Origin: an uncultured Bacteroidales bacterium
GTDB lineage: Bacteria; Bacteroidota; Bacteroidia; Bacteroidales; Muribaculaceae
Length of the DNA: 64,000 bases
Direction of reading: 5' to 3'
NCBI GenBank assembly: GCA_902793405.1
Contig: CADBDH010000001.1
Coordinates: forward strand, 1-64,000
Made by a program: the position numbers and the translations under genes. The notes below the pieces were generated by a model. The model ran no database searches. It had not been told where the DNA came from and saw only the letters and a list, made by a program, of their open reading frames with translations. This document shows, piece after piece, positions 5,737 through 41,407 of the stretch; the stretch's first letter is position 1; each line of letters starts with the position of its first letter.

Positions 5737-5783
5737 GTGGAGCATAGCGGACTCGAACCGCTTACCTCAACACTGCCAGTGTT
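5737..5783. other. attL: displaced 3' part of tRNA-Ala
   Basis: 47 bp identical to 41361-41407, covering the acceptor 3' strand, T-arm, variable loop and anticodon stem-loop of tRNA-Ala on the minus strand. The next bases (AAGAACCCC) do not continue the tRNA, so this is a fragment, as expected for the original 3' end left behind after integration. Confidence 0.85.
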
Positions 5784-6908: not shown

Positions 6909-6915
6909 ACTCAAT

Positions 6916-7536: not shown

Positions 7537-7633
7537 TGATGTCTTTTTTCTAATAAATAGCATGAATAACAGAGAATGGTATTACTGAGGTAGATTATTT
7601 TGATTTGTCAAAAAAAACTTTGTTTTATATGTC

Positions 7634-7662
7634 AATTTGTGTAACAAATTTGCTAACTTTGT
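7634..7662 (+). promoter_or_regulatory. Promoter and dyad operator of the defence operon
   Basis: TAACTTTGT at 7654-7662 fits the -7 consensus. Directly before it lies a perfect 7-bp dyad, AATTTGT (7634-7640), GTA, ACAAATT (7644-7650), which also contains a TTTG. A repressor bound there would cover the promoter; the XRE protein encoded 26 bp downstream is the natural candidate. Confidence 0.5.
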
Positions 7663-7687
7663 TGCATCAAATGTAAACTTTAAAACC

Positions 7688-7909
7688 ATGTTTATGGAGA
7701 ACAGCACGCTTAACCGGATAAAAGGTGCACTCGCCGATAATCAAAAGAGCAGTAAATGGCTTGCCCAACAATTAGGAAAGTCCCCGACAACAGTGTCACG
7801 ATGGGCCTCTAACAAGGTTCAGCCATCTGTGGGGCAACTCTATGAAATAGCCGAGGTGTTGAATGTTGATGTCAGGACCTTGCTTGTGTCAAATCGCGTG
7901 GAGGTGTAA
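7688..7909 (+). CDS. XRE-family helix-turn-helix regulator
   Basis: This 73-residue protein is a single Cro/C1-type HTH domain: TLNRIKGALADNQKSSKWLA, then QQLGKSPTTVSRWASNKVQP as the helix-turn-helix, ending with IAEVLNVDVRTLL. It is the first gene of the long operon (36 bp before the SNF2 helicase). A dyad covering the promoter suggests autorepression. Similar small XRE proteins head DISARM, BREX and other defence loci, where they keep expression low until needed; that role here is inferred. Two in-frame ATGs (7688, 7694) are possible starts. Confidence 0.8.
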   Translation: MFMENSTLNRIKGALADNQKSSKWLAQQLGKSPTTVSRWASNKVQPSVGQLYEIAEVLNVDVRTLLVSNRVEV

Positions 7910-7945
7910 TTGCACCTGTTGTTCACTTTTAATATCAACTAAGAC

Positions 7946-10774
7946 ATGAGTATTAACTATTCTGCCGGGCAACGCATCTCGGTGCGTGGTGAGGAGTTTC
8001 TCATCACCAAAATTGAGCGTAATGCCATCAGCAATTCCTATATTCTATTTGCTAAGGGGCTATCAGAACTTGTCGCCAACCACAACTATGTATTTGACAC
8101 GTCGATAGACAAGAACATTGACATTGTCAATCCTGTCAATACAGAACTGGTCGTTGACGCTGACCCACAATGCCGCAACACGCGATTACTCATTGAAACA
8201 TCGCTTCGCAGCAATTCTTATTTCTCAAACAAAATCACCGTGGCCCAGCATGGCGCCTATGACCTTGCTCAGTATCAGATGGAGCCGACGCTGAAGGCCT
8301 TTGAGTTACCTCGTCCTCGTCTTCTCATTGCCGATGGCGTAGGACTTGGCAAGACCATCGAAGTCGGTATCTTTCTGTCCGAGATGATTCGCCGTGGCCG
8401 TGGCAAGCGTATCTTGGTATGTGCCCTCAAATCTATTTTGGCCCAGTTCCAGGAAGAAATTTGGAATCGCTTCTCCATTCCATTGGTCCGTTTGGATTCC
8501 TATGGTGTTGATAAGATTCGTTCAGAAATCCCCATGAACAAGAATCCGTTTGAATATTACGACAAGACCATCATTTCAGTTGATACGCTCAAGAATAACG
8601 GTAAGTTCCGTGGTTGGCTGGAGAAGACCTATTGGGATATCATTGTCATTGATGAGTGCCATACCGTCGCTAATGACTCTAGTCTACGTGGTGACCTGGC
8701 TCAGTTCTTAGCAGGACGGTGCGACAGCATGATTTTGACCTCAGCAACGCCTCACAATGGTACAGCCGAGTCCTTTGCTAACCTTATCAACATGCTGGAA
8801 CCGACTGCTATTCCCCGCAACGGTCAATATTCCAAGAAAGATGTCGAGCCTTACTACGTGCGTAGATTCAAGAAGGACATTGTAGACGATACAATTCGCA
8901 ATAACTTTCAGGAGAGACAAGTAGAGCCTATACGCTTCAAACTCAGCCCTTATGAAGAAGAATTTTTAGCAAAGCAGCAGGCCATAAAGTTCCGTTCTAT
9001 TGATGAAAAGAATGACAAGGAACGAAAAGACTTGTTATTCTCCATTTCGCTATTCAAGGGATTTCTTTCTTCTCCTCAGGCTGCACTTGAATCGGTCAAC
9101 AACCGCATAAAAAATAGCGAACAGAACACTGAGGAACTAATGGAACTACAGAAGATGCTCGCCAATATCATCAATGTTGATGCCGATAGCCGTTATGCTG
9201 CATTTAAAGCCAAACTCAAAAAGATATGGGACAACAACCGTAGGGAACGAATTGTGATTTTCACAGAGCGTGTAAAGACGATGGAATACTTGCAGGAAAG
9301 AATCATGAGAGAGTTCGGGTTGACTGATGAGCAGGTTGTTCTATTTAACGGTTCATTGACTGACACCGAGCAGGAAGAGATGGTAACGAACTTCAGCAAA
9401 GCCGATAGTAAGATTCGCGTCTTCATCAGCAGCGATAGCGGCAGTCAGGGTGTTAATCTGCACTACTTCTGCCACATCATGTTCAACTATGACATTCCCT
9501 GGTCTATTATCACTCTGCAACAGCGCAACGGCCGTATAGACCGATATGGGCAAAAGCAGCCACCAATCATTTATTATTTGCTGGCAGAAACTGGCAATGA
9601 CCCCAAGCAAGAAAAACTCCGAACCGATTTCACCATCGTTCAGAAACTTATGGATAAGGAGAAAGAAGTGCATGACACTTTAGGTGATGCCATGAGTGTA
9701 ATGAAACTTTACAGCGCAACTAAAGAAGAACATGCGGTGCAGGAAGTTTTGAAGAAAGGTGACCCGGGCTATTTTGAGGTATTGAGGAAACAACGCTTGG
9801 CACTGTTCAACTTCGATTTAGATGAGACAACACCTGTTGAGCACAGGGAAATCTACGAACCTCAATTGTCCCTTTATCATAACAATATGGATTTCTATGA
9901 TGAATTGTTCTCTAATCTTAAGTCAACCGGCAGCATCGGTGTGCATGATGTTGACATCAAGAGGGGTGATGTCACCTATGTTGAAGTCCAGAACACTCCT
10001 GAACTGAAAGATGTGCTCTACGATATGCCTCGGGAGGCCCAACCTCTTGACGGAACCTACTATTTGTGTGAGGACAAGGCTATGTTGAACCGTAGCATCG
10101 CGGAGTCTCGCAAGACTCAGGACAGCCGTTGGAGCAAATTCCAACCGCTATATGACCTTCATCCTATCATCCAGTACCTGTTCACAAAGTTCACCTCTGG
10201 TTTCGGCAAGAGCCAGGCGACGGTTGTTAAGAATGGCATGTTCCCCAAGGGTCAGTCTTACTATCTGTTCTATGGCAGCCAGTGTAATGGACTTGGACAA
10301 AGCCTAATTAGCAAATTCTTTGTGGTGCCCATCAATCAAGAAGGCGCCATGAATGAAACTCCTTTATCATTATCTGATTTCATGCAGAAATTCAAGATTG
10401 ACGAAACCTTCTACCGTGAAGAGGTCACAGAGGAGGAACTTGCCATCTTGAGGGAAAACCTTCCCATGGCTGTTGAAAGTGGACGTGAAACTTACCTTTA
10501 CGAAAAGCAAATCGAGAAGAGTATCGAAATGGAAAAACAACTCGATAAGTACAAGGAGCATCTCCAGCAGTGGGCTGAGACTTCAAGAGAGAGCCTCACT
10601 ATCCCATTTGAGGGCGATGCCGCCCAGGTGACCATAACTCGCCGCAACAGGGAGAAGAAACTTGAGGAAATCCAAACCATCCAGAACAAGAGCAGCCAGT
10701 TCTGCCAGGACATGTATACCCTGGACAAGGCTGACCCATATATGAAACTGCTTACCGTGTTCTTTAACTTCTAA
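7946..10774 (+). CDS. SNF2-family helicase, DrmD-like
   Basis: This 942-residue SF2 Snf2-type ATPase has Walker A DGVGLGKT (about 130-137), DECH box [10 protein letters not shown] (about 233-242), motif III SATPHNG (about 266) and motif [14 protein letters not shown] (about 525-536). A long C-terminal part follows, ending in a charged coiled coil ([21 protein letters not shown]). It is followed 11 bp later by the giant adenine methyltransferase; this helicase-methyltransferase pair is the hallmark of class 1 DISARM (drmD-drmMI). The expected role is DNA translocation or remodelling on incoming phage DNA. GC content is intermediate between the island's AT-rich genes and the chromosome. Confidence 0.85.
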
Positions 10775-10785
10775 TATCAATCGTC

Positions 10786-13700
10786 ATGGCAGAAAACGTA
10801 AAATATAGATTCATTCAAAATGTGGGCGAATATTTCCCCGCTGGTTACTTTGGCGAGGACTTCCTGGAGAAGGTCCAGAAGTGTGCCGGCCTGGATGCTG
10901 ATAGCATGAAGGCCCTGTCTTCCAAATATACACCGCTGCGTCGCGAATATGACGAGTACAAGAACTTTATCGTTAACGCTCATCCTCGTGTACAGGACGC
11001 TATCAAGGCTACCCATGATTTCAACACCCGCCTGCTTGAAATTTGGGGTTACGATACACGCGAGCCTTATAGCACTCCATATATCATCAATGATGACCAT
11101 GACCCTTACGACTATGTGCCAGTGCGCCATACGCTTTACCACAATGGCCAGGTGCGTATGCTTGTCATGGAGATGCAGCACCTTATCAAGGTGGATGAAA
11201 CAGAGCCTGCAGGCCTGTTTGAACAGCAATATGACGATGGCGGCATCGTCAAGCACCAGCGCTACACGGTATCGCAGTGGAACAAGGTCTTTCAATTTGA
11301 CCCCGAGCACTACAAGATATCACCGGCAGTCATCAACAAGGCCATCACTCAGATATTCCTCATGCCTGAGCAGCGCCGTCCTCATTTCATCTTGCTTATG
11401 GCAGGTAATGCCATCTTTTTGTTCGATGAGGAGAAGTGGGCTAGGGGAGGCTATTTGCTTTTCACCCTTGACGAGTTGTTCTCTCAGGCGAGCATCGTTG
11501 CTAACCGCAACTACTACGCCCTGTTCCACCTGCTGCTGAGCAAGGAGACGCTTGCCGGCGACAGCGAGACGGTGCTCATGGACACCATCATCGAGGAGAG
11601 TTACAAGAACGCCTACGAGGTCACCAAAGACCTCAAGGAAGGCGTTGTCAATGCAGTTGAGACTTTGGCCAATGAGGCGCTCTATTACAAACGCCATGTG
11701 GTGCATGAGCCTTTTGGCAAGAAGAACGATGAGACTGGCGAATATGATGAGACTGACGATGGCTTCGAGGCCGAAGTTCGCGACGACTGCATCACCATTG
11801 TCTACCGCTTGCTCTTTATCTTCTTCGCCGAGAGCCGTCAGGAACTCAACATCCTGCCCACCGACGACGAAATCTATAACAAGGGCTATTCCCTGGAGAT
11901 GCTGCGTGACCTGGAACAGGTCAGGCTCATCAGCGAGGAAACTCGCAATGGCTATTTCATTGACGACTCCATCCGCCAACTCTTCAGACTGCTGAGCGAT
12001 GGCTTTAATGCTAACCGTGACGATGGCCTTGACAAGCGTTTCAAGGTCCGCAAGATTGACTCGCCCTTGTTCAACGACAAGAAACTGCACCACTTGGGCG
12101 ACGTGAAAATCCGCAATATCAAGTGGCAGGAAATCATCAAGGCTTTGTCACTTAGCCACCGTGGCAGTAATGTGGGCCGCATCTCCTATGCCAACCTAGG
12201 CGTGAACCAATTGGGTAGTGTCTATGAGAGCCTGCTGGCTTACCGTGGTTTTTATACTGAAGAGGATTACATCGAGGTACATAAGGCCGGGGCACCAGAG
12301 GATGGAACTTATCTAGTTCCCTATAGCCGTATGGGCGACTTTGATTTCGATACTGAGGTGCTAAAGAACGATGACGGCACAGTTCATATTCTGAAACGTG
12401 GCACGTTTGTCTATCGTCTGAATGGACGTGACCGACAGAAATCGGCTTCCTACTACACGCCTGAGGTACTTACTCGCAGCACAGTAAAATACACGCTCAA
12501 GAACATCCTTGACGAGGTAGCAGCCGACAAGCGCAAAGCCACCGAACTACTCAACCTCAAAATTTTAGAGCCTGCCATGGGTGCTGCAGCCTTCCAGAAC
12601 GAAATCATCAACCAACTGGCAGAGGCTTATCTAGAACACCAACAAAGGCAATTGCGACAGAATGGACACGATTGGCGCATCCAACCGGACAAATACCGCA
12701 GCGAACTGCAAAAGGTGAAAGCCTTTATCGCTACCCATAACGTATATGGCGTCGACTTGAATCCCACTGCTATTGAACTGGGCAAACTGTCACTGTGGCT
12801 CAATGTGATTCACAAGGACATGGACACTCCCTTCTTCTCTAACCGCATTGCCCTGGGTAATGCCGTGATTGGAGCCTGGCTCAAGGTGTACAGCAAGGAT
12901 GAGGTTTATGTTATCAGGGATGGCAAGCGCGATATTCCCAACAAGTGGTGGGAAAAGGCCCCGCACAAGGTTTCGTTTAACAAGAACAGCGTGGCACGTA
13001 GCGTCAATGAGGTCTATCATTTCCTGTTGCCCGATGCTAACATGCTTGCTGTGCGCTCCATTACTGAGCAAAAGCGGCAGCATCCCCTGGAATTCAACAA
13101 GATGCGAGACCTCATCAGGGATTGGACCAAGCCCATTTACTTCAATGATTTCATCCGCTTGCAACGTATAAGTGGCATGATTGATGTCCTGCTCAAGGAA
13201 TACTTTACCTTCGTGAAAAGCATGGAGGAACTCACCGATGACCGCAAGCAGATTTGGGGCATCATCAAGGACAACAACCGCATTGCGTTTGACACCTACG
13301 ACGACAAGGAGCGTCTATTCAACACCCGCTATCGTCGCGATAACGCTTATTACAGGCTCAAACTGGTCATGGACTATTGGTGCTCACTGTGGTTCTGGGA
13401 GTATGATGAGGCAGCAGACCTACCCACCCGCGATGAATATTGGGACGACATCGAGGCCTTGCTCAACGTGAGTGATGACCAACTTGACAGTCGTACACGC
13501 CAGGCCATTGGCAAAGCAAAAATTGAAACTCCCTCACTCTTTGAGAGCGACACGCAGAGTGAAGAGGAGAGTGATATCATCCTCAAGAGTAAAGAAGAAA
13601 TCCTGCTTGGTGTCCGTGGCGACCACAACCTCTTTTCCGAGAGTTATCGCTTCAAGAATGTCAAGCGCTATGCCGACCGTTACCACTTCTTCCATCCCAT

Positions 13701-15723: not shown

Positions 15724-15748
15724 AATAGGAAAATTAATATATAACTCT

Positions 15749-25004: not shown

Positions 25005-25011
25005 TAAGTTT

Positions 25012-28000
25012 ATGTTACCACTACAGCAAGCATACGAGGTAAAGGAATCAGTCTTGGAGTACATCAAGGCAACATTCCGGTTCAAGGACAAAGACGTCTA
25101 CGATGAGTTCTATCGTTTCATTGAGAACAAGAACAATGGACTCTTTAAAGGTCCCTATGTTTCCCTCAAGACACCCTTTGTCAAGGCAACAAAGGAGGAG
25201 ATGGAGCATATTCCTCTTGACATCGTGCCAAAATTCACACCGCACCGACACCAGTTACAGGCGTTCGAGAAACTGACGACTCATGGCAATCATAATCCCG
25301 AACCTACACTGCTCACTACTGGTACAGGTTCAGGTAAAACTGAGTGCTTTCTGTATCCAGTTCTTGACTACTGCTATCAATGTAATAAGGACGGGATACG
25401 CAAGGGAGTTAAAGTGCTCATCATGTATCCCATGAACGCCCTGGCAACCGACCAAGCCAAACGTATTGCAGAGACAATCTGGAACGACCCGCGACTTCGG
25501 GGTAAAGTTACAGCAGGTCTCTTCATTGGAGAAGGGGAGAATCCCCAGAATTACTCCACAGTAATGGGACCGGATAAAGTGATAGAGAATAGGGCCACGA
25601 TTGTTGATACTGCTCCAGACATCTTGCTCACGAACTTCAAGATGCTTGACTATGGTCTCATGCAGCAAAAATATATGCCATTGTGGACCGGTAACATCAA
25701 CAGTGACGACCCTGCATTGCGTTTCATCATTCTTGATGAGTTACACACCTATGATGGCGCTCAGGGAACAGATGTAGCCAACCTTATCAGACGTCTAAAA
25801 CTCAAACTTGACCTTCCTGCCAACCGCTTATGCCCTGTGGGTACTAGTGCGACTATTGGTAATGGAGTAGACAGCAAAAAGGACCTGTGCGCATATGCCA
25901 GTGACGTGTTTGGGGAATTTTTCCAAGAGCATGATGTCATAGAAGAGCATCGCGTTGCAGTGGATGACCTTTTCAGTGGAACTTTAACTCCCGAGTTGCC
26001 AAGTGGAGAGCAGTTGTCCAAGTGTGAATTTGGCGACGATGACAATGTGGCCTCATACCTGAAACGAATTCGCGAGATATGGCTCCCAGAATTCGGTGAT
26101 TCGCCACAAGAAATAGCATCTGGACTTAATCAGTTGCTTATTACTCGCGATTTATTACATGTCACCGCTCCACATATCATCACAGTTGACAGACTAAGTA
26201 GAGAGTTGGCCAAAGAGAATGCAGCATTCAAGGAATTGTCGCCTGAACTTCGAGTTCTTGCTATCGAGTCCATATTAGCGCTTGTCGCTCAAGCGAAAGA
26301 TGAGTTTGGATTCCCTGTACTCTATCTACAAATACAATTATGGCAACGAGAACTTAGCGGTGTCTTGCGATATGTACAAGAGAAACCTGAATTCACATGG
26401 CGTGATAAACTGTCAAACGATGGTAGGGTAGCATTACCCATGTACTTTTGCCGTGACTGTGGTGCCAGTGGCTGGCTTTCAAAAAGATTGCAAACTGACA
26501 ATCATTTTAGCGCGAATATCAGCGACATCAATGTGGCATTCATCCAAGAACATGACAAAGATGTATGCCTGCTTAACTTAGATACACCGAGGCACGAACC
26601 AATTGAAGAATATCTTGGCACTGATAACGATAACGCAAGCATGTTCATCCATACACGTGACTTGAGCGATGCCAACCATGATGATGTCGACGCGCTTAAA
26701 ATTAGGATGTGCCGTAAACTCACAAAGCCCAAACAAGGACAAAAGCAGAAGTTTATGAGCAACTGCCCGGAATGTAATTCAGATTCGCTGACGATGGTCG
26801 GTGGGCGAACCTCAACATTGTCATCGGTCGCCATCAGCCAAGTCATGTCAAGCGACTTTGATAGTAGTGATGACTCCAAACGAAAGATTCTGACATTCAC
26901 CAACAGCGTCCAAGATGCTGCCCATCAGGCTGGATTCTACGAGGCCAGAACATTCCGCTTCCTTTTCCGCCAATCCATCCAACAATATCTTAAGACCCAA
27001 TCTCAGCCGATTTCATTAGCAGAACTTCAAGCCGGCTTTAAGAAGTACTGGAAAGAACAACTGCCCAATGATGAATACTACTATAAGTTATTACCATCAG
27101 ATATTGCTGCAAGAATTGACCTGGACAAGAACTATCGTGACAGTTCAGGCCACACCTTCATAGATAGTTTCAAGAAGGAATTCGACCTTCGAATGGATTG
27201 GGAGATATGCTCAGAATTTGGTCTTAGGGCTCTTATTGGACGCACCCTTGAAAAGACTGGTACATCCGGTACGTTCTTCTCTCGAGAGATGCTAGAGGGG
27301 ATATTCGATAACATGAAATACTGGCTCATTAACAATAATCTTGAGTTTATTACCAGTGATGCATTTTGCCATTTCTTGAATGGTCTATTGCATCGTATGA
27401 GGACCCGTGGCGGCATCAACCATCCTTACCTAGACAAATTTAGGGCGGAAAAACTTAAACCATACGAGTTGAATTGGAACTTCAGCAATGAACACTTCTT
27501 AAATAAGAAGTTTAACAGTTCTGTGCGCTATCCCAAATTAGTCGCCACAAATGCGGAAAACAGCCTTGAAATTGTCGATGTGACTAAGGTCGCGCGTAAT
27601 GCAAACTGGTTCTACACCTACTGCAGAATGTGCTTTGAGCCTCTTAGGAATATTGGAGACACAGACTTATATCCACTTGTAGTGAACGATTTCTATATTG
27701 AATTGTTCAACGTGCTCTACAGGGCAAACGTTGTTTCTTGTAAACGTTCCCGTACTGGGGTTGAGACTTATGCCATAAGACCTGAAGCAATTATGGTTGA
27801 GCCTAAGGTGAAACACATCAAGTGCGACCATTGCCAGTCAATTCAGTATGTAGCGGCTAGCGACCAACTAACACCAGGGACCCACTGTATTGAATACAAG
27901 TGTCTTGATGGCAAGTACAGTGAAATCGTTACACCTGAGTTCAACTACTACCTAGCCGTATATAACCGAAAGAAATCACCTCGTATCTATGCTAGTGAGC

Positions 28001-31000
28001 ACAATGGTCTCCTTGAACGCCAGGAACGAGAAGAAGTTGAACGGTCTTTCAAGGAACATCCTAACTTTAATTCTGTCAATGCATTGAGCGCGACATCAAC
28101 ACTTGAGATGGGTATTGACATTGGTGACCTTAATGTGATGGGCAATACGAGCATTCCTCCTAAGCCCAGCAACTTTCTCCAACGCGTTGGCCGTGCTGGT
28201 CGTAAGAGTGGCAGCGCGCTAGTTCTGAACTACGCCCATAGTGATGCTCGCCATGACATGTTCTATTACGATGAGCCACTGGAAATGATGGAAGGCGAAG
28301 TTCAAACACCGGGATGCTTTCTGGAGGCAAAAGATATCCTTCGCAGGCATTTCTATGCCTACTGTATTGACTCATGGACAAGTGCTAACAGCGCACATAA
28401 ATTGCCAGACCAAATCCGGACATTGAATCTCACCGAGGCTTCCCTTGTTGATGAGAATTTCTTCATCAATAGAATCGCTACCTATATAAAGAACAACAAA
28501 GAATGGCTGATGGGGAGATTTAGAAAGAAGTATCCACCAAAAACTTTACCCGTTCTTGACGCGTTATTCGAAACTATAGAGAACGGTAACTTCTTCCTGA
28601 CCATTGAGCAGGAATTCAAAAAACTCGCTGACCATCTTCAGATGCTTCGTGATGAAAGGGCAGAACTTGAACAACAAAAATCTAGGCTTCAACCAAATGA
28701 CATTGCCCTTGAGGATATAAAAGAACGAATTAAGGGAGTCAATGTGCAACTAGGTCTTTTGCTCAAGCAATTAGTCATCGAGTATATGACGAACGCTGGA
28801 TTATTGCCTAATTACGCTTTTCCTGAGACTGGAGTAAAACTAGAAGCAAGCATTTATACACCAAAAGCCCGTGGTGATTTGGCTCAAAACAGTATCGAGC
28901 CTAAAGCCATTGAGATTGTTAGACCAGCATCTCAAGGAATCAGGGAATTGGCCCCAGGAAACTTCTTCTACACTCATAAGAGTCGCCTGCCAATATCTGG
29001 CATAAGCACATTTGGCTGGAACGACTCTGTGCAAAAGTTTCGTTATTGCTCTAACTGCGACTGCATAGCAGACGAAACAATGCCCGAGTTCAATGAGAAT
29101 GTATGTCCAAAGTGTGGTGATATGAGTTGGGGAGCCAATAAACACCAATACATGAAGTTTCTTTCGTCTCGAAGCAATCCGAGTCGAGAGGAAACTGCAC
29201 TAGAGGATAACAGCGATGAACGTGAAATGGAACGCTTCCATGTCATGAAACACTTTAATTTCCATAATAGTGGAAATGTTGTGTCTTATGGTCTGAAAGA
29301 TGTGGGCTTTGGTATTGAGTTCTGTAAAGACGTAGAGATAGTCGAAGTCAATTATGGTCGTCAGGATATCTATCAACAACGTACTCAAGTAAATCGAGAC
29401 ATTAACATCCCTGCAAACGGCTTTATAGTCTGCCGGTCATGCGGAAAGGTTATTTTGGATAATCCCAATACGGTTAAACAAGAAGATTTACATTACAAAT
29501 ACTGCAAACATAAAGATGTTCCATATCCTCCTGGACCCGATGAGAAGAACATATTCGAGGAACTATACCTCTATCGCCGCCTGAACACTGAGTCAATAAA
29601 GGTGCTGCTCCCTGTTCAGTTTGTTGACACGCAGTCAAGCATGCAATTATTCAAGGCGGGGATTGAGTTGGGAATGCGTCACTATTATAAAAGTAGCCCC
29701 GACCATATCAGAATCGATACTTACCAGGAGTACAACGAGGCAACACAGAATTTTGATAACTATCTCGTTATCTATGACTCTATCCCTGGTGGTACCGGTT
29801 ACTTGGCAAAACTATATAACACGTCAGAGTTCTCTGAGTTGATAAAACTCGCATACAAGCACATTCGCGACTGCAAATGCCAAAATGAAGGTAAGGATGG
29901 CTGTTATCATTGCATCCTAACTTACGGTAACCAAATGGGAAAGGAGCAAATTAGCAGAAGCAAAGCGGAACTCCTCTTCGAGAAAATCGTTGAAAGATTG
30001 GACCAGTGGGAGACCATCCCGGGTAGCATCGGAACAATTACGCAGAGCGGTGTAATTGAGGATTCAGAACTCGAATTGAAATTCATTAGCATTATTAAAC
30101 AGATGGCAGCCACGAAGGGGTGGCATTTTGAGAAGGTCATTGATGTCGACCATTACTTCTATGAACTTTTCATAAAAGACGATAACCTTGAATGCAAGTA
30201 CAGCATTCGTCCGCAGTACAGGTTAGGTAGTCGAGATGGAATTAATGCTTACACCATTTCCGATTTCCAATTCATTTGTAACTACGCTAGAACTGGTGAT
30301 TCAGAAATAGATGTATCAACAGTTCCACAATGGGCGGTTTACCTTGACGGTTATCGTTATCATGCGTTTGGAGAGAACATACGGCTATACGACGATTTCA
30401 AGAAACGGGAAGCAATCCGGCACAAAACGGGTACACCAATGTTCACTTGGACATTAACCTGGAAAGATTTGTCCTTGACCGAACCTGATTCTGACGGAAA
30501 ACTTGGGACTGACGAGTTATACCTTCAAAGCATCGGTGAACTTGAACAGTTATACAATAATGATATTCATAAATGCCGAAACTCACTTGAACGTTTCATA
30601 TACGTGTTGATGCATCCCAAGATGACGAATGTCAAGAATGACATCTACAACTACATGATGTGTCATTTATTCCCACAACAACACCGCTACATTTGTTCAT
30701 ATGATGATATTGAAGATGCATTGGAGAATAATGCGACAGATAATCTATTCTCTCAAATCGCACAAGATGACTTAGCGCAAGGTCATTTCTTCGCGCGTAC
30801 TGATTTGCCTCCAATTATCACTGCACTAATGGTGGGAAGTTCATCGTGGTGTGCAGTAGATTTTTTTGCTGAATCTTACCAGGATGATACTGTGTTGAAT
30901 TCTGCATTGGACGTAAGCATGAGGTGTATATTGAAATTGAAGCAAGGACTTCAATCTGTTGACCAACTAGAATGGGAGAAATTCTGGCGCTTGTATAATC

Positions 31001-31308
31001 TCTTGCAGTTCTTCAACCATACGGATTCACAAACACAAGAGACCATCAATTATGACGAGATTATGATGTTCTTCCCTGGCTTAGAAGACATCGTAAAACA
31101 ACTGCTAGACAACGGAATTGACTTCGACCATGACGGCGGGTTCTGCTTGGAAGATGAAGATGGCGTAATGCTAGCAGAGGCCGACCTCGGATTCGCCGAT
31201 AAAAAGATTGTCATTAATCCCATCGACACCGATAGTCGGAATGCATTCATTGGCGCTGGATATACAATCGTGTCTCCAGAAGATTTTAATATTGAACTAG
31301 TTAAATAA
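25012..31308 (+). CDS. DEAD-box helicase with DUF1998 (DrmA-DrmB or DruE-like)
   Basis: This 2098-residue SF2 helicase has Walker A TGTGSGKT (103-110), DEAH-type box ILDELHTYDGAQGTD (about 241-255) and motif VI QRVGRAGR (about 1054-1061). A 600-800-residue insert between the two RecA lobes contains Cys pairs (CRDCG, CPEC). Zinc-type CxxC pairs follow at CSNC, CPKC and CRSC, then a DUF1998 ending in CKCQNEGKDGCYHC (about 1622-1635). Next comes a segment with VYLDGYRYHAFGENIRLYDD (about 1779-1798), which resembles PD-(D/E)XK-like domains of such helicases, and the final 80 residues match the end of the preceding helicase. In DISARM these functions are split between DrmA and DrmB; in Druantia DruE they are fused. 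Likely the main DNA-processing motor of the system. It starts 7 bp after the previous gene. Confidence 0.85.
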   Translation: MLPLQQAYEVKESVLEYIKATFRFKDKDVYDEFYRFIENKNNGLFKGPYVSLKTPFVKATKEEMEHIPLDIVPKFTPHRHQLQAFEKLTTHGNHNPEPTLLTTGTGSGKTECFLYPVLDYCYQCNKDGIRKGVKVLIMYPMNALATDQAKRIAETIWNDPRLRGKVTAGLFIGEGENPQNYSTVMGPDKVIENRATIVDTAPDILLTNFKMLDYGLMQQKYMPLWTGNINSDDPALRFIILDELHTYDGAQGTDVANLIRRLKLKLDLPANRLCPVGTSATIGNGVDSKKDLCAYASDVFGEFFQEHDVIEEHRVAVDDLFSGTLTPELPSGEQLSKCEFGDDDNVASYLKRIREIWLPEFGDSPQEIASGLNQLLITRDLLHVTAPHIITVDRLSRELAKENAAFKELSPELRVLAIESILALVAQAKDEFGFPVLYLQIQLWQRELSGVLRYVQEKPEFTWRDKLSNDGRVALPMYFCRDCGASGWLSKRLQTDNHFSANISDINVAFIQEHDKDVCLLNLDTPRHEPIEEYLGTDNDNASMFIHTRDLSDANHDDVDALKIRMCRKLTKPKQGQKQKFMSNCPECNSDSLTMVGGRTSTLSSVAISQVMSSDFDSSDDSKRKILTFTNSVQDAAHQAGFYEARTFRFLFRQSIQQYLKTQSQPISLAELQAGFKKYWKEQLPNDEYYYKLLPSDIAARIDLDKNYRDSSGHTFIDSFKKEFDLRMDWEICSEFGLRALIGRTLEKTGTSGTFFSREMLEGIFDNMKYWLINNNLEFITSDAFCHFLNGLLHRMRTRGGINHPYLDKFRAEKLKPYELNWNFSNEHFLNKKFNSSVRYPKLVATNAENSLEIVDVTKVARNANWFYTYCRMCFEPLRNIGDTDLYPLVVNDFYIELFNVLYRANVVSCKRSRTGVETYAIRPEAIMVEPKVKHIKCDHCQSIQYVAASDQLTPGTHCIEYKCLDGKYSEIVTPEFNYYLAVYNRKKSPRIYASEHNGLLERQEREEVERSFKEHPNFNSVNALSATSTLEMGIDIGDLNVMGNTSIPPKPSNFLQRVGRAGRKSGSALVLNYAHSDARHDMFYYDEPLEMMEGEVQTPGCFLEAKDILRRHFYAYCIDSWTSANSAHKLPDQIRTLNLTEASLVDENFFINRIATYIKNNKEWLMGRFRKKYPPKTLPVLDALFETIENGNFFLTIEQEFKKLADHLQMLRDERAELEQQKSRLQPNDIALEDIKERIKGVNVQLGLLLKQLVIEYMTNAGLLPNYAFPETGVKLEASIYTPKARGDLAQNSIEPKAIEIVRPASQGIRELAPGNFFYTHKSRLPISGISTFGWNDSVQKFRYCSNCDCIADETMPEFNENVCPKCGDMSWGANKHQYMKFLSSRSNPSREETALEDNSDEREMERFHVMKHFNFHNSGNVVSYGLKDVGFGIEFCKDVEIVEVNYGRQDIYQQRTQVNRDINIPANGFIVCRSCGKVILDNPNTVKQEDLHYKYCKHKDVPYPPGPDEKNIFEELYLYRRLNTESIKVLLPVQFVDTQSSMQLFKAGIELGMRHYYKSSPDHIRIDTYQEYNEATQNFDNYLVIYDSIPGGTGYLAKLYNTSEFSELIKLAYKHIRDCKCQNEGKDGCYHCILTYGNQMGKEQISRSKAELLFEKIVERLDQWETIPGSIGTITQSGVIEDSELELKFISIIKQMAATKGWHFEKVIDVDHYFYELFIKDDNLECKYSIRPQYRLGSRDGINAYTISDFQFICNYARTGDSEIDVSTVPQWAVYLDGYRYHAFGENIRLYDDFKKREAIRHKTGTPMFTWTLTWKDLSLTEPDSDGKLGTDELYLQSIGELEQLYNNDIHKCRNSLERFIYVLMHPKMTNVKNDIYNYMMCHLFPQQHRYICSYDDIEDALENNATDNLFSQIAQDDLAQGHFFARTDLPPIITALMVGSSSWCAVDFFAESYQDDTVLNSALDVSMRCILKLKQGLQSVDQLEWEKFWRLYNLLQFFNHTDSQTQETINYDEIMMFFPGLEDIVKQLLDNGIDFDHDGGFCLEDEDGVMLAEADLGFADKKIVINPIDTDSRNAFIGAGYTIVSPEDFNIELVK

Positions 31309-31321
31309 AAACATAGACATT

Positions 31322-33424
31322 ATGAGACTTTTCTTATCCGACACATTTGTCACAAAATTGCTGCAACTACCAAAAGGCACTCAGCAAAAAGTGCTCAGTT
31401 TTCATCGAAAATTCAGGAGTGACTCCACATCATCTGGTATTCATCTAGAGCCCTTGCATGCGTCAAATTTGCTCAGCGCTCGTGTGGATGGGGCGTATCG
31501 TGTTATTATAGGACGCATTGAAGGGGAAACCTACAACTTGCTTTACGTTGACAAGCATGATGACGCTTACGAATGGGCTAGCAGACGTCGTTTCGCTTGG
31601 AACAAACATCTTCAGACGTGTCAGTTGATTCCCGTTATCGAGAGTGCTTCTTCCGATGCAGAACAACAACATCAAGAGCCTGAACCGTCTTCGACACAAA
31701 CGTCGTACTTTTCTAATATTAGCAATGAACAATTGCTTAAGATTGGAGTACCAGCAGAACTGATAAGTAAAGTACGCTCGTTAAAAGACTTAAATGACCT
31801 TGATAAGGTGGAAAAGTTGCTCCCACAGGAGGCATTCGAGAATTTGTTCGCGCTCTTTGATGATGGCGATATTAACGAGATTATAGCATCCATCGAAGAG
31901 GGCCTCGCAGGCGCAGGTAAAGATGAATTGCTTAGCAATAATAACCAACGTCATTTTATTGAGTTGACCGATGATGAGACATTGCAAGAGATTCTAGAAA
32001 AGGACATGGAAACCTGGCAATTGTTCTTGCATCCATCGCAGCGCAAATTGGTAGACGCTCGCTATAAAGGCACCGTAAAAGTTAGTGGCAGCGCCGGCAC
32101 TGGCAAAACCATTGCAGCCATCCACCGCTTGAAGTATTTGTGTAACACGCCATACACCAAAGTGCTTTTCACAACGTACACTAATACCCTGCGAGTTCAC
32201 TTGGAGCCACTTATCAATAAATTGGAGATACCACGTGAGCGGTATGTACTTAATAATATAGATAAGGTCCTTTCTGAAATTGTTACAAGATATGGATTAA
32301 TGCCTTTTGGTTATGAGGTCCTTGACTATCAAGGTAACGACAAATCTCAGCAATTATGGCGAGAACTCCTTGAGGCAGAAAACATTGATTTTGACGAGAA
32401 GTTCCTCTATGATGAATACATTCAGGTCATCGTGTATAATAATATACATGATATGAAGGCTTACATGCGGCAAGCCAGAACAGGACGCACCAAGGCTATC
32501 TCCAGGAAGCAGAGGCTTCAAGTGTGGCAACTGGTTGAAAAATACGAGGCTATGAAGCAAGAAAGGAAGGTCGTTGATAGGCTTGAGTTATTCAATATCG
32601 CAGCGAACTACCTAAAAGAGCATGAGGAACACCCGTATACCAATGTGATAGCAGATGAATTCCAAGATTTCAGCAATCCTGAGTTGCGATTCTTGAGGGC
32701 TCTTGTTGCAGAAGGAGAGAATGACTTATTCTTAACCGGCGACCCATTCCAGAGAATCTATACCGGTCAAAAGATTAAATTCAGTGCTGTAGGTATTAAC
32801 GTTCGAGGAAATCGTTCAAGAAAACTAAAGGTTAATTATCGTACGACTGAAGAAATCAAGAAAGCCGCTGTTGCTGTTGTCAAAGGAATCAAATACGATG
32901 ATATGGACGGAGGAGAAGAAAAGTTGAATGGATACGTATCACTAATTCATGGCAATCGCCCAGTCTATGAGTTTGTCAATAACGGCAACGAAGAGGTGGA
33001 TAGGGTAGTGGGCTGGATTAACGAATGTCTTGAAGGAGGAATACAGGAACAAGAAATCTGTGTAGCGGCCCGTTCAATGAACTTCATGAAAGCATTTCAA
33101 GGCACTCTTCACCGTGAAGGTATGAAATACCAGAATATAAAGGCGAGCGGTAAGGCAGAAGGCGACAAGGACGGCATATCACTGTGTACGTTCCATTCGC
33201 TGAAGGGACTGGAGTTCAGAGTGATTATCCTCATGGGGGTAAACGAGAGGAACGTGCCGTCTAAGGCTACCGCTGACTACCCATTCATCAATATGGATGT
33301 AGTTGAGCAGAAGGAGTATTTAGCAAGCATCCGTTCGTTGTTATATGTGGCAATTACCCGCGCCCGTCAACTTGTATTCATTGTTGGTTATGGGCAGCCA
33401 TGCCAATTACTGAATTCAATCTAG
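31322..33424 (+). CDS. UvrD-like SF1 helicase with RelE-fold N-terminus
   Basis: Residues 1-95 of 700 look like a RelE/ParE-fold module (MRLFLSDTFVTKLLQLPKGT, then VDGAYRVIIGRIEGETYNLL, VDKHDDAYEWASRR). A UvrD-type motor follows: Walker A VSGSAGTGKT (about 251-260), DEFQD box (about 445), FLTGDPFQRIY, motif V TFHSLKGLEFRVI and motif VI SLLYVAITRARQ (about 670-681). Such RelE-UvrD fusions are known as stand-alone helicases in bacteria; the RelE-like part probably binds nucleic acid or a partner instead of acting as a toxin, because the usual RelE catalytic residues cannot be assigned here. It starts 13 bp after the DUF1998 helicase and belongs to the same operon. Confidence 0.8.
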   Translation: MRLFLSDTFVTKLLQLPKGTQQKVLSFHRKFRSDSTSSGIHLEPLHASNLLSARVDGAYRVIIGRIEGETYNLLYVDKHDDAYEWASRRRFAWNKHLQTCQLIPVIESASSDAEQQHQEPEPSSTQTSYFSNISNEQLLKIGVPAELISKVRSLKDLNDLDKVEKLLPQEAFENLFALFDDGDINEIIASIEEGLAGAGKDELLSNNNQRHFIELTDDETLQEILEKDMETWQLFLHPSQRKLVDARYKGTVKVSGSAGTGKTIAAIHRLKYLCNTPYTKVLFTTYTNTLRVHLEPLINKLEIPRERYVLNNIDKVLSEIVTRYGLMPFGYEVLDYQGNDKSQQLWRELLEAENIDFDEKFLYDEYIQVIVYNNIHDMKAYMRQARTGRTKAISRKQRLQVWQLVEKYEAMKQERKVVDRLELFNIAANYLKEHEEHPYTNVIADEFQDFSNPELRFLRALVAEGENDLFLTGDPFQRIYTGQKIKFSAVGINVRGNRSRKLKVNYRTTEEIKKAAVAVVKGIKYDDMDGGEEKLNGYVSLIHGNRPVYEFVNNGNEEVDRVVGWINECLEGGIQEQEICVAARSMNFMKAFQGTLHREGMKYQNIKASGKAEGDKDGISLCTFHSLKGLEFRVIILMGVNERNVPSKATADYPFINMDVVEQKEYLASIRSLLYVAITRARQLVFIVGYGQPCQLLNSI

Positions 33425-33480
33425 ATAGGAATTGTTAAATAATTGATTCAAAGATATTGGAATAATAATTAAGCAATCGT

Positions 33481-34278
33481 ATGTTCACGAAAATAAGAAA
33501 TGGCGAGCCTGTGGTCTTCACTCATCAATGTAAAGAGGAAGACAGGGGAAGGCAAATGACAAGAGAGGAACTGAGGGAATTCCTTGTGAGAGTTCTTTTC
33601 GAGTGTTTTAAGGAGACGGGTAGCAACGTGGAATTGTGGGACCGAGAATCCAGTAAATCTTCATATACTCCCATCCCTGATATGATGAAGCACGACACGC
33701 TGGGACCGAATTCCTTTAGCACCGAATATGTTGTGCTGTGTTCTGAAGAAGAGAAGAATGATTGTGACATTGCCGCAATGGAACAACATTTCCTGGATAC
33801 CGGTGTGATAAGCAAAATAATCGTCGGCAACGTCTGGTGTCTAGATACAAATGGTATAGGTGAAATATGTGGTGGAGATTATGTCATTAAGTTTTATTCT
33901 CATTCAATCATCCCAAATCAGCCCAATACTCCACACACAACAGTGCTGAGCCAAAAAGAACTCGCCGAAAAAGTCGCCACCGCATGGATGAACTTAAATG
34001 CGGATATACTGGAGCCATATCTCATCAGCAGTTTTCACTACAACAGTGCTTGGGTGTTTGAAGATATTGCAAGCAGATACGAGTACATGTTTTATCTGCG
34101 AGGAAAATTTGTAACTCTTCGCCGAAACAATGTCCGGCTCGGAATACAATTAGGTAAGAATTCTGCTACGGGTAATTTTGCAGTCATCTTGACCCAGGGT
34201 AATGTCCACTCCATATTAACAGTCGACACTTATGACGGTTGGATAACGAGCATCCGGATGGACGAGTTCGTACCTTAA
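33481..34278 (+). CDS. Protein with C-terminal NTF2-like domain
   Basis: This 265-residue protein has an N-terminal part of about 150 residues that I do not recognise (MFTKIRNGEPVVFTHQCKEE; a helix EELREFLVRVLFECFKETG). Its C-terminal 110 residues resemble an NTF2-like (SnoaL-type) cone fold: AWMNLNADILEPYLISSFHY, SAWVFEDIASRYEYMFYLRG, then antiparallel strands to ILTVDTYDGWITSIRMDEF. NTF2-like domains bind small ligands or act as dimerisation modules. The gap to the preceding gene is 56 bp, the longest in the operon; no promoter is evident in it. The role in the defence system is unknown; the position between UvrD and PLD genes suggests an accessory or ligand-sensing function. Confidence 0.6.
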   Translation: MFTKIRNGEPVVFTHQCKEEDRGRQMTREELREFLVRVLFECFKETGSNVELWDRESSKSSYTPIPDMMKHDTLGPNSFSTEYVVLCSEEEKNDCDIAAMEQHFLDTGVISKIIVGNVWCLDTNGIGEICGGDYVIKFYSHSIIPNQPNTPHTTVLSQKELAEKVATAWMNLNADILEPYLISSFHYNSAWVFEDIASRYEYMFYLRGKFVTLRRNNVRLGIQLGKNSATGNFAVILTQGNVHSILTVDTYDGWITSIRMDEFVP

Positions 34279-34294
34279 ACCATATTGAGCAACT

Positions 34295-35389
34295 ATGATG
34301 AAAACAGAAATAATTGATAAAAACATAGGCGAACGACTCACGGCTGCGTTTGAATCCGCCATTGATGTTTCTGTGGCTGTTGCAATGGTGGGCGATAAAG
34401 GATATGAACTCCTCCGTAAATATGCTAATAAAAAGAGAATAAGAATTGTTACCGGCATTAACCTGCCAACACCATACAATGTGCTTAGCCAACTGAGGAC
34501 GAAATTTGGCGATAACGCTCGTGTGTTCAAGAATTCCTTTTTCCATCCAAAGGTATATCTCTTTACCATGGCCGACGGTTCTCATCAATGTTTTGTTGGG
34601 TCTAGCAATTTTACCGACGGTGGCCTTCAGAACAATGTTGAACTGTCAGTGTGCCTAAATGATGACAAAACATACAGGCAGTTATCGGATTGGTTTGAGA
34701 AAATCTATTCAGACTCAATTAAGATAACTGATAGACTTCTCGAAGAGTATAAGATATCTAGTGAACATTTTATCAAAGAAAAAAGGAAATTCGAGAAGGG
34801 GTCAAAAGATGTATTGCGTCGGGCGGCATTCGTATTTGACCAAAAGCGTTTCAAAGATGAACTTGTAGCATTCCGACAAAGTCCTTATTACAACGAACAC
34901 TTAGAATCGAGAAAACGGACTGTCTCCGAGATAAGGAAGGCTCTTGACATGAGGCATGGTTTCAATAAGATAGACTTGAAAGCGTTTCTTGCCATCAAAG
35001 AACTGGGTCATATAATACCCATGTATGTTGATGACTTGAACAAGGCTGTTAAGAACGGGCGATTTGCGCGATTGTGCAGGATGTTATGCGACAACAAACT
35101 TAGCATCAGTGAGAGATACGATGCAGCCATGAATAAATACAAAGTAAAAGGATGCGGCCGAAACATCGTTACCAAGATTCTCGTCGCGCATGATTCAAGT
35201 AAATACTTCCTTTGGAATGCACCGTCAGAAGAGTATCTTAAATATGTTGAGGTCTCGTTCGAACGCGGAAGTAGCGAAGGGATGAAATACGAGTCGCTAT
35301 GCCTAGAGTTAAAAAAACTGTGTCAAGAGGCAGGGATTGATGACTTTGCTGTGCTGGATTATTTCATGTGGGAAGAATCAAACGATTGA
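34295..35389 (+). CDS. Phospholipase D-family protein, DrmC-like
   Basis: This 364-residue protein has one PLD/nuclease active-site half: FFHPKVYLF (H and K of HxK at about 84-86), then CFVGSSNFTDGGLQNNVELS (about 100-119), matching the HxK...GSxNFT pattern. A single HKD motif implies a dimer, as in Nuc-type nucleases. The C-terminal half is helical and basic (KRFKDELVAFRQ, LEEYKISSEHFIKEKRKFEKG) and unassigned. DISARM drmC encodes a PLD-domain protein, so this completes the class 1 gene set. It is the last gene of the operon, 16 bp after the NTF2-like gene. Confidence 0.75.
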   Translation: MMKTEIIDKNIGERLTAAFESAIDVSVAVAMVGDKGYELLRKYANKKRIRIVTGINLPTPYNVLSQLRTKFGDNARVFKNSFFHPKVYLFTMADGSHQCFVGSSNFTDGGLQNNVELSVCLNDDKTYRQLSDWFEKIYSDSIKITDRLLEEYKISSEHFIKEKRKFEKGSKDVLRRAAFVFDQKRFKDELVAFRQSPYYNEHLESRKRTVSEIRKALDMRHGFNKIDLKAFLAIKELGHIIPMYVDDLNKAVKNGRFARLCRMLCDNKLSISERYDAAMNKYKVKGCGRNIVTKILVAHDSSKYFLWNAPSEEYLKYVEVSFERGSSEGMKYESLCLELKKLCQEAGIDDFAVLDYFMWEESND

Positions 35390-36759: not shown

Positions 36760-36784
36760 ATCTTCATCTGTATTGGTTTGCACT

Positions 36785-41360: not shown

Positions 41361-41407
41361 GTGGAGCATAGCGGACTCGAACCGCTTACCTCAACACTGC
41401 CAGTGTT
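41361..41407. other. attR: 47-bp direct repeat overlapping tRNA-Ala
   Basis: Identical to 5737-5783. Here the sequence continues into the rest of a complete tRNA, so the island's copy has restored the gene after integration. Confidence 0.85.

What the first reader, a model, noticed from the sequence alone, without database searches (positions are those of the whole stretch)
7634..35389. Nine-gene, 27.7-kb DISARM-related operon with three extra motor genes
Seen: XRE, SNF2 helicase, giant adenine methyltransferase, 2393-aa GHKL ATPase, Upf1-like helicase, 2098-aa DEAD/DUF1998 helicase, RelE-UvrD helicase, NTF2-like protein and PLD protein. All are on one strand with gaps of 36, 11, 25, -8, 7, 13, 56 and 16 bp. 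Known: DISARM has drmA (helicase), drmB (DUF1998), drmC (PLD), and class 1 adds drmD (SNF2) and drmMI (adenine methyltransferase). Inference: this is an expanded relative in which DrmA and DrmB functions are fused (as in Druantia DruE) and GHKL, SF1B and SF1A ATPases are added. I do not know a named system with exactly this gene set, but cannot exclude that it has been described.
Basis: partly seen in the sequence, partly recalled or inferred. Interest (0 to 1): 0.92.

Follow-up and report, generated by a model that had tools for sequence, protein, structure and literature searches.

The report
Anti-phage operon with swappable plug-in module
A bacterium of the class Bacteroidia carries a known four-gene virus-defence system (ARMADA Type II) into which a second two-gene defence-like module has been slotted, and that module's helicase ends in a copy of the host system's own tail, which suggests that different defence parts can be plugged into a shared machine.

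Summary
The nine genes are real, but the operon is not a new DISARM relative. Four of them (ArmA, ArmB, ArmC, ArmD) form a complete ARMADA Type II system (Bell et al. 2025 preprint), 30-36% identical to E. coli ArmA-D over most of their lengths. RelE-UvrD is core ArmD, not an extra. The extras are a GHKL ATPase and a UPF1-like SF1 helicase between armB and armC, an XRE regulator, and an unconserved end pair ('NTF2-like', PLD).

Two findings are absent from the papers I could search. (1) The armB-armC junction is an insertion slot: occupied in 21 of 43 loci, against 1 of 33 for armA-armB and 1 of 70 for armC-armD. Cargo includes GmrSD, Septu, Schlafen, Mokosh and Zorya parts. (2) The GHKL-helicase pair also occurs outside ARMADA, where the helicase usually ends in a PIN nuclease (7 of 9). 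No ARMADA-embedded copy has PIN (0 of 5), and 3 of 5 end instead in a copy of ArmC's C-terminal domain.

Best reading: a guest sensor-motor module that gave up its nuclease and docks on ARMADA. Docking is inferred, not shown. The operon is cargo of a 35.7-kb element in tRNA-Ala.

The parts
7694..7909 (+). XRE-family regulator (71 aa)
   Evidence: HTH_3 E 4e-9; small XRE-like genes also precede ArmA in G444, G129 and Prevotella ihumii
7946..10774 (+). ArmA: BrxHII/RapA-like SNF2 helicase (942 aa)
   Evidence: 34% over 960 columns to E. coli ArmA
10786..15723 (+). ArmB: PglX-like adenine methyltransferase (1645 aa), NPPW at 991
   Evidence: 36% over 1499 columns to E. coli ArmB; best PADLOC model is type IIG restriction-methylase PDLC03614, 1386 bits
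15749..22930 (+). Guest 1: GHKL/sacsin-type ATPase (2393 aa), Tiamat TmtA-like N-terminal part, C-terminal adaptor of about 190 aa (residues 2196-2388)
22923..25004 (+). Guest 2: UPF1/SEN1-like SF1 helicase (693 aa)
   Evidence: AAA_11/AAA_12, SEN1 and UPF1 structures
24738..24995 (+). ArmC-like C-terminal domain of the SF1 helicase (residues 606-691)
   Evidence: residues 603-692 are 41% identical to ArmC residues 2009-2098, E 1e-18; HMM of 14 ArmC tails E 3e-29; AlphaFold pLDDT 94
25012..31308 (+). ArmC: YprA-like helicase with MZB/DUF1998 and C-terminal nuclease-like region (2098 aa)
31036..31305 (+). ArmC C-terminal domain (residues 2009-2098), the parent family of the SF1 tail
31322..33424 (+). 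ArmD: RelE-UvrD (GajB-like) helicase (700 aa)
   Evidence: 35% to E. coli ArmD over residues 2-697
33481..34278 (+).
   Evidence: no family hit; matches in 12 of 397 family genomes, own included, most of them partial; none in the 80 ArmC loci
34295..35389 (+). PLD/NgoFVII-type nuclease (364 aa), accessory cargo
   Evidence: RE_NgoFVII E 2e-11; none in the 80 ArmC loci
5737..5783 (.). attL: perfect 47-bp copy of the tRNA-Ala 3' end
41361..41407 (.). attR, inside tRNA-Ala (GGC) 41361-41434
39430..41160 (-). Tyrosine recombinase (integrase) of the carrier element, named by eye from its sequence

Best explanation
This is a complete ARMADA Type II system (ArmA-ArmB-ArmC-ArmD) carrying a guest module, GHKL ATPase + UPF1-like helicase, in a preferred insertion slot between armB and armC, the whole being cargo of an integrative element in tRNA-Ala.

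Proposed working: ARMADA marks self DNA with ArmB and attacks unmarked phage DNA with the ArmA/ArmC/ArmD motors and the ArmC nuclease. The GHKL protein acts as an additional sensor-switch and hands its signal, through its C-terminal adaptor, to the SF1 helicase. Outside ARMADA that helicase usually carries its own PIN nuclease. Here it carries a copy of ArmC's C-terminal domain instead, so it is proposed to dock where ArmC's tail docks and to use ARMADA's nuclease.

Status of the steps. Shown by sequence: core identity, slot, cassette exchange at that slot, absence of PIN and presence of the ArmC-type tail, shared GHKL adaptor. From the preprint: ArmA-D protect E. coli together. Inferred: self-marking by ArmB, docking, sensing, and division of labour.
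For: Core: ArmA-D match E. coli ARMADA II proteins (538, 856, 747, 406 bits), while E. coli DruE III matches ArmC only in three separate stretches of 115, 76 and 40 bits; same order and similar sizes as E. coli plasmid and chromosome loci.

Slot: gaps of 300 bp or more at armB-armC in 21 of 43 loci, armA-armB 1 of 33, armC-armD 1 of 70 (Fisher p 6e-6 and 5e-10, rows related); the 46 non-overlapping slot ORFs of 100 aa or more are all co-directional with the operon; at least 13 changes of state on the ArmC tree. G444 and G695 (ArmC 84% identical) share DNA up to the armB stop and again from 4 bp before armC, yet hold 12.9 kb and 4.5 kb of different cargo.

Guest: ArmB-...-GHKL-SF1-ArmC-ArmD in G444 and, with another GHKL body, G558; also in Bacteroidetes MAG L021 and, across a contig break, G001. 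Tail: 3 of 5 ARMADA-embedded SF1 helicases, 0 of 9 elsewhere; PIN: 0 of 5 against 7 of 9. Of 10,691 ORFs in the loci then held, 64 match the tail HMM: 56 score as ArmC and the other 8 are copies of these same three SF1 genes. The GHKL C-terminal adaptor is detected in all five embedded pairs, G558 included.
Against: No functional or binding data exist for the guest. Two of five embedded SF1 helicases (L021, G001) have neither PIN nor tail. G723 has no PIN and no tail and shows no ARMADA on its 15-kb contig, yet its helicase groups with the tail-bearing clade (95/98). The tail counts are small and the rows related. The G444 tail is closer to its own ArmC tail (59%) than to the other SF1 tails (48, 54%), so a single old capture is not certain, and it has a premature in-frame stop about 23 residues before its end. 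The tail's fold was not matched in the PDB (best E 2.0); that it is one of the preprint's 'inactivated Vsr' domains is my inference. In E. coli the slot is empty in the rows shown, so a guest is not needed for ARMADA. Ten of 80 loci have about 10 kb upstream of ArmC but no detectable ArmB: a longer slot, or a different layout that I did not resolve.
Confidence: 0.6

Rival explanations
1. Hitch-hiker: the GHKL-helicase pair is an independent defence system that merely shares the ARMADA operon and its promoter; the ArmC-like tail came by recombination with the adjacent gene and has no docking role.
For: The pair occurs without ArmA-C in the stretches fetched from G475, G452, G616, G617, G723, G770 and G267 and beside or within BREX genes (G683; fusion in G607, with G667 alike). 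Slot cargo is varied and includes genes of unrelated systems. Two of five embedded copies lack the tail. The G444 tail is most like ArmC tails, 59% to its own and 61% to that of G570.
Against: Tail present and PIN absent in three of three family loci whose helicases are only 39-55% identical to the window's, so the arrangement has been kept over long divergence. For the window and G558 the SF1 tails are closer to each other (47%) than to their own ArmC tails (42, 37%), which speaks against recent local copying there.
Confidence: 0.25
2. Decoy/guard: the SF1 tail is bait. Phage proteins that inhibit ARMADA by binding ArmC's C-terminal domain also bind the SF1 tail and so trigger the GHKL-helicase module as a second line of defence, as PARIS answers Ocr.
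For: The tail is predicted to fold well (pLDDT 94) and copies a C-terminal domain of ArmC. BREX loci are reported to recruit backup effectors, PARIS-like ones among them, that answer inhibitors (PMC12839542, section 35).
Against: No anti-ARMADA protein came up in my reading (none was searched for); the embedded helicase lacks the PIN nuclease that a stand-alone backup would be expected to need.
Confidence: 0.12
3. One obligate nine-gene system: all nine genes form a single new DISARM-class machine.
For: Tight spacing and one strand.
Against: The core works as four genes in E. coli (preprint); relatives have an empty slot (Prevotella ihumii 136 bp, G570) or other cargo (G695); the 265-aa and PLD genes were not found in the 80 ArmC loci.
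Confidence: 0.03

Closest known systems
ARMADA Type II (Bell et al. 2025 preprint, PMC12458937)
   Same: ArmA, ArmB, ArmC, ArmD in the same order, similar sizes and long-range similarity; carried on an element in a tRNA gene, as described there for E. coli
   Different: armB and armC are separated by 9.3 kb holding GHKL and SF1 genes; XRE before and two genes after; the preprint speaks of strict gene order and its main text has no GHKL, sacsin, UPF1 or NTF2
DISARM class 1
   Same: SNF2 helicase, adenine methylase, YprA-family helicase, and a PLD gene in the operon
   Different: DrmB region fused to the helicase; DrmD and DrmC scores below curated cut-offs
Druantia (DruE)
   Same: large YprA-family helicase with MZB in one chain
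   Different: only three local stretches (115, 76, 40 bits) to E. coli DruE III against 747 bits to E. coli ArmC
Tiamat (TmtA) and Mokosh (MkoA)
   Same: GHKL N-terminal part resembles TmtA (290 bits); SF1 helicase core resembles MkoA (91 bits)
   Different: GHKL match is partial (three stretches, best 220-777 of 2393) and the gene is paired with a helicase; no kinase or NERD match in the SF1 helicase and no MkoB among the hits
Backup effectors embedded in BREX (PMC12839542; BrxU, PMC8565348, the latter seen only as a listing with the start of its abstract)
   Same: defence genes, including GmrSD, OLD and Schlafen types, lying inside a methylase-type defence operon
   Different: described for BREX; no GHKL in the main text of PMC12839542; no capture of a host-system domain in the passages I read

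Membership tests
ARMADA Type II | BrxHII/RapA-like helicase, PglX-like methylase, YprA-like helicase, RelE-GajB-like helicase in this order | tested here: met
   RelE part by similarity to E. coli ArmD only
ARMADA Type II | Long-range relatedness of all four proteins to E. coli ARMADA II | tested here: met
   34, 36, 30 and 35% identity, E 3e-135 or lower; ArmC residues 1821-2098 and ArmB residues 1-198 lie outside the aligned stretch
ARMADA Type II | armA-armB-armC contiguous ('strict gene order' in the preprint) | tested here: not met
   9288 bp between armB and armC; but 21 of 43 loci also break this adjacency, so order is kept and adjacency is not
ARMADA Type II | Active Vsr-type nuclease at the C-terminus of ArmC | tested here: inconclusive
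   Invariant D1779, G1780, H1784, D1795, R1799 in seven aligned ArmC are compatible; the AlphaFold model of the region (pLDDT 71) had no Foldseek match below E 0.3
ARMADA Type II | Anti-phage activity | not testable with these tools
   no experiment
DISARM | Separate DrmA and DrmB | tested here: not met
   DEAD, Helicase_C and MZB lie in one 2098-aa chain
DISARM | DrmD and DrmC above curated cut-offs | tested here: not met
   329.7 against 610; 29.4 against 133
Druantia | DruE as closest relative of the YprA helicase | tested here: not met
   115 + 76 + 40 bits to one DruE (type III) against 747 to ArmC; no ARMADA-named model appeared among the PADLOC hits shown, hence its DruE labels
Tiamat | TmtA along the whole protein | tested here: not met
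   three stretches, the best matching residues 220-777 of 2393 to 8-537 of 1302
Mokosh | MkoA with kinase or NERD part plus MkoB | tested here: not met
   helicase core only; no MkoB among the hits of the neighbours

The most novel reading that the evidence does not exclude
ARMADA Type II is a modular immune chassis. Guest defence modules are plugged into one fixed slot after the PglX-type methylase gene, and some guests become physically wired in by exchanging their own effector (PIN nuclease) for a copy of the host system's ArmC tail, so that new phage sensors share one DNA-destroying machine. The GHKL + UPF1-like helicase-PIN pair is itself an unnamed stand-alone defence system that also embeds in BREX.
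Probability: 0.4. Interest if true: 0.85.

Novelty: new variant of a known kind. Interest (0 to 1): 0.68.

Why it matters
Defence systems are usually catalogued as fixed gene sets. Here one set has a defined slot through which parts of other systems pass, and a guest carries a domain of its host. That gives a directly testable route by which separate immune systems could become one complex, and it warns that tools which name systems by gene lists can mislabel such loci: the best PADLOC models call ArmB a type IIG enzyme and ArmC DruE. It also names a candidate new two-gene system (GHKL + UPF1-like helicase-PIN) for phage tests.

Tried and rejected
Rejected: (a) DISARM or Druantia membership. 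(b) The 265-aa and PLD genes as system parts: no tblastn hit at E 1e-3 in the 80 ArmC loci (51 of 70 loci with ArmD have 2 kb or more after it); the 265-aa protein matches 12 of 397 family genomes, own included, most of them partially (larger stretches of two of them read, no ARMADA there); PLD has no plasmid match at E 1e-8. (c) That the tail is a general tag of slot cargo: among the ORFs examined only the three SF1 helicases carry it besides ArmC. (d) Phage carriage: single-protein queries in viral contigs gave no pattern match for SF1B and no relative of the 265-aa protein; such queries find close relatives only. (e) Variation inside E. coli: 519 of 5426 genomes have a match to the junction query; 60 spread rows were shown, 59 of them with an uninterrupted junction and one a 2% match to another gene; the other 459 records were not inspected.

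Led nowhere: Foldseek for the tail and for the ArmC C-terminus; phmmer of GHKL against the PDB; paper searches for GHKL-helicase systems; a needless second collection of a finished ticket.

37 of 80 show no same-strand ArmB upstream and are left out of the armB-armC count: 27 have under 6 kb of sequence there, and 10 have about 10 kb and still no ArmB. Slots over 10 kb would be missed. The G001 pair is inferred across a contig break. For several 'outside ARMADA' pairs (G770a, G617, G452, G723) the contig ends close by on one side; what is shown is that no ArmC follows the helicase and no ArmA-C was detected in the stretch (G475 has a weak 78-bit ArmD-like helicase). Only part of the slot proteins were scanned against family libraries: the G695 pair, the PtuB-position gene of G444 and the G667 neighbours were not. 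The G617 helicase is in two ORFs. Some slot ORFs in GC-rich loci (for example L086, L089) may be spurious. The PIN HMM was built from three rows that had already matched Pfam PIN_4. In one search a length filter could have hidden long non-ArmC proteins with the tail; one search repeated it without the filter and found none.
Full report
OBSERVATION. The family calls are sound, except that 'NTF2-like' for the 265-aa protein has no family support and RelE rests on similarity to E. coli ArmD.

CORE IDENTITY. Bell et al. (bioRxiv preprint of September 2025, PMC12458937; I read the Abstract, Introduction, the results sections on new classes, anti-phage activity, domain architecture, nucleases and additional domains, the start of the co-occurrence section, the MGE section, the Conclusions and the figure legends) define ARMADA Type II as ArmA (BrxHII-like helicase), ArmB (PglX-like methylase), ArmC (YprA-like helicase) and ArmD (RelE-GajB-like helicase), all four needed in E. 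coli, acting without cell suicide. The window proteins match E. coli ArmA-D from a chromosomal Zorya-Druantia-ARMADA array at 34, 36, 30 and 35% identity (538, 856, 747, 406 bits). Against DruE III of the same array ArmC gives three stretches of 115, 76 and 40 bits. Sizes agree: 942/952, 1645/1644, 2098/2113, 700/704. An E. coli plasmid has the four genes back to back. DISARM models stay below curated cut-offs. So the operon is ARMADA Type II with additions. No ARMADA-named model appeared among the PADLOC hits shown, which explains the DrmD, type IIG and DruE labels.

THE SLOT. Using HMMs for the four proteins on the 80 loci, a space of at least 300 bp was found between armB and armC in 21 of 43 loci with both genes, between armA and armB in 1 of 33 and between armC and armD in 1 of 70 (Fisher p 6e-6 and 5e-10; rows are related, so these are descriptive). 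The other 37 loci show no same-strand ArmB: 27 have under 6 kb of sequence upstream of ArmC, 10 have about 10 kb. The 46 non-overlapping ORFs of at least 100 aa chosen in the 21 slots are all co-directional with the operon. On a FastTree of ArmC with 52 scored tips, 27 occupied, at least 13 changes of state are needed; shuffled labels need 17.5 on average, and 12 of 500 shuffles were as low, so occupancy is labile but not random. In Bacteroidota 11 of 13 scored loci are occupied (G001 across a contig break), elsewhere 16 of 39. Cargo identified by family search: SLFN_AlbA_2 (L022, L034), GmrSD (L039, L042, G558; an Orf5/SspE-like DUF262-type pair in G129), MkoB beside a NERD-kinase-helicase gene (L069), Zorya II ZorA/ZorB (L054), AbiEi plus an OLD-type ATPase (L065), a protein kinase (L048), Hsp70-like (L046), a DEAD/ResIII helicase (L038), Septu PtuA and an OLD-like ATPase (G444), and sacsin/GHKL proteins (L021, L024, L036, G558; also L023, where ArmB is not in view).

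The cleanest case is G444 against G695, with ArmC 84% identical. DNA similarity (74-75%) runs to the end of armB, stops, and resumes 4 bp before armC. Between them lie PtuA + 211-aa gene + OLD-like + GHKL + SF1 (12.9 kb) in one, and a two-gene pair (4.5 kb) in the other that looks like the GmrSD pair of G558 but was not scanned itself. Prevotella ihumii (136 bp) and G570 (about 100-165 bp, depending on the ArmC start) are empty. In E. coli 59 of the 60 rows shown, out of 519 matching genomes, have an unbroken junction; the remaining row is an off-target 2% match.

THE GUEST. GHKL homologues at E 1e-10 were found in 4 of 395 class genomes and 14 of 397 family genomes, own genome included; several matches cover only the N-terminal part. 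Contexts: in ARMADA next to an SF1 helicase in the window, G444, G558, L021 and, across a contig break, G001; with an SF1 helicase and no ArmA-C in the stretch in G475, G452, G616, G617, G723, G770 (two pairs) and G267; after BrxC and PglXI genes in G683; fused to the helicase (2718-2754 aa) in G721 and G734, and as a fusion between PglX and PglZ of a BREX locus in G607 and, by matching neighbours, G667; with no helicase beside it in G415 and G359.

The helicase C-terminus differs with context. Seven of nine unfused non-ARMADA helicases end in a PIN domain: Pfam PIN_4 at E 1e-20 to 1e-22 for G452, G267 and G770a, and an HMM built from those three for G475, G616, G683 and the second ORF of G617 (E 2e-66 or lower). 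G723 and the second G770 pair lack it. None of five ARMADA-embedded helicases has PIN. Three (window, G558, G444) end in a domain found otherwise only at the end of ArmC: HMM of 14 ArmC tails, E 3e-29, 7e-29 and 3e-22; in the window 41% identity over 90 residues to its own ArmC. The other two (L021, G001) end soon after the helicase. Of 10,691 ORFs (loci overlap) 64 match the tail HMM: 56 score as ArmC, and 8 are copies of these three genes. The window and G558 SF1 tails are closer to each other (47%) than to their own ArmC tails (42 and 37%), which fits an old capture; the G444 tail does not follow this (59% to its own ArmC, 61% to the ArmC of G570, 48 and 54% to the other SF1 tails), so a second or renewed capture there is possible. 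In the helicase tree the tail-bearing rows form a clade with G723 (95/98), so G723 may have lost the tail or its system left ARMADA (long branches, 14 rows). No significance test was run on these small, related samples.

The last 190 residues of GHKL are shared by the SF1-paired GHKLs of the window's kind, by L021 (E 8e-12), by G001 (E 4e-7) and by G558 (E 4e-20), whose body is of another lineage in the GHKL tree (long branch). They were not detected at E below 0.1 in G267, L023, L036, the second G770 pair, G415, G359 or the fusions. A different body with a kept C-terminus next to SF1B suggests that this is the GHKL-SF1 contact.

STRUCTURE. AlphaFold2 gives the tail pLDDT 94 with order H-H-E-E-E-H-E-H. 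The preprint says that inactivated EEP and Vsr nuclease domains often follow the active one in Type II ArmC; that this tail is such a Vsr is my inference. The three-strand, helix, strand core is compatible (recalled), but Foldseek found nothing better than E 2.0. The 439-residue ArmC C-terminus modelled poorly (pLDDT 71) with no match below E 0.3. The invariant DG...H...D...R residues of ArmC suggest an active nuclease but were not tested.

MECHANISM. Steps shown by sequence: complete ARMADA core; guest in a recurrent slot; guest helicase without PIN and with an ArmC-type tail; shared GHKL adaptor. Taken from the preprint: ArmA-D protect together and non-abortively in E. coli. Inferred: GHKL as nucleotide-driven switch or sensor (from the family), relay to SF1B, docking of SF1B through its tail on ArmC or ArmC's partner, use of ARMADA's nuclease. 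My estimates: core identity 0.97; slot real and general 0.93; tail functional rather than incidental 0.7; docking on ARMADA 0.55; sensing role of GHKL 0.5. The decoy reading of the tail is kept as a rival because it predicts the same anatomy.

CARRIER. A perfect 47-bp repeat of the tRNA-Ala 3' end at 5737-5783 and 41361-41407 and a tyrosine recombinase beside the tRNA (named by eye) mark a 35.7-kb integrative element; the operon is 78% of it. G+C is 0.40-0.47 in most of the element against 0.55-0.57 beyond 44 kb, but also 0.46 in the first 4 kb of the window, so it does not mark the left border. The preprint reports tRNA-targeting elements with 16-20-nt repeats for E. coli ARMADA.

NOVELTY. 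In the searched library (PubMed Central open-licence papers to August 2026), my searches for ARMADA returned the preprint and, with a single occurrence of the phrase 'antiviral defense array', PMC13192584 (listing only) (also 6, 74, which list further papers with the bare word or with other search terms). The preprint's main text speaks of strict gene order and has no GHKL, sacsin, UPF1 or NTF2; its supplementary tables were not available to me. Backup effectors embedded in BREX are described (Rakesh and Krishnan 2026, PMC12839542; outline, passages and the first part of section 35 read), so nesting as such is known; GHKL is not in that main text. GHKL-helicase defence systems were not found. 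Subscription papers and preprints outside the library could hold either finding. I therefore file it as a new variant of a known kind.

Noticed in passing
window 5737-41407: Integrative element in tRNA-Ala (GGC): perfect 47-bp direct repeats at its ends, tyrosine recombinase 39430-41160 (-), serine recombinase-like gene 36130-36825 (-), primase/VirE-like gene 37612-39348 (+) (names by eye). The own genome has no other long copy of the att sequence; the next match is 20 bases.
   Followed up: partly
L135/L136 (G607), L137/L138 (G667): GHKL and SF1 helicase fused in one 2750-aa protein lying between PglX and PglZ of a BREX locus, that is, again downstream of the PglX-type methylase (G607 scanned; G667 by matching neighbours).
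   Followed up: partly
L122 (G444 helicase gene): The ArmC-like tail of this SF1 helicase carries a premature in-frame stop about 23 residues before its end: decay, sequencing error or a shortened tail.
   Followed up: no
L061 9865-10000 and L157 (G570) armB-armC junction: The empty junctions contain short repeats: near-tandem TCCGACCAG-like units in Prevotella ihumii, three GAACACGCGTGTTC palindromes in G570. Possibly marks of how the slot is entered.
   Followed up: no
L154 4335-5601 (G558): The 3' end of armB looks interrupted by a 337-aa ORF, with the last armB residues as a separate piece.
   Followed up: no
L027, L035, L051, L087, L090, L092, L096, L097, L100, L023: Ten ArmC loci with about 10 kb upstream and no ArmB detected there: longer slots, split armB or another layout.
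   Followed up: no
L012 15001-31674 (Cylindrospermopsis plasmid): ARMADA-like genes annotated in the order YprA-type helicase, UvrD helicase, SNF2-type helicase, methylase (C-D-A-B by size and product name; not scanned).
   Followed up: no
L187 8321-10714 (G484): A relative of the window's 265-aa protein forms the N-terminus of a 797-aa protein, near a DUF262/GmrSD-looking gene (by eye): a possible further defence family.
   Followed up: partly
window 6279-7563 (-): HNH/NUMOD4-like homing endonuclease ORF overlapping a phosphoribosyltransferase-like ORF at the left end of the element (names by eye).
   Followed up: no
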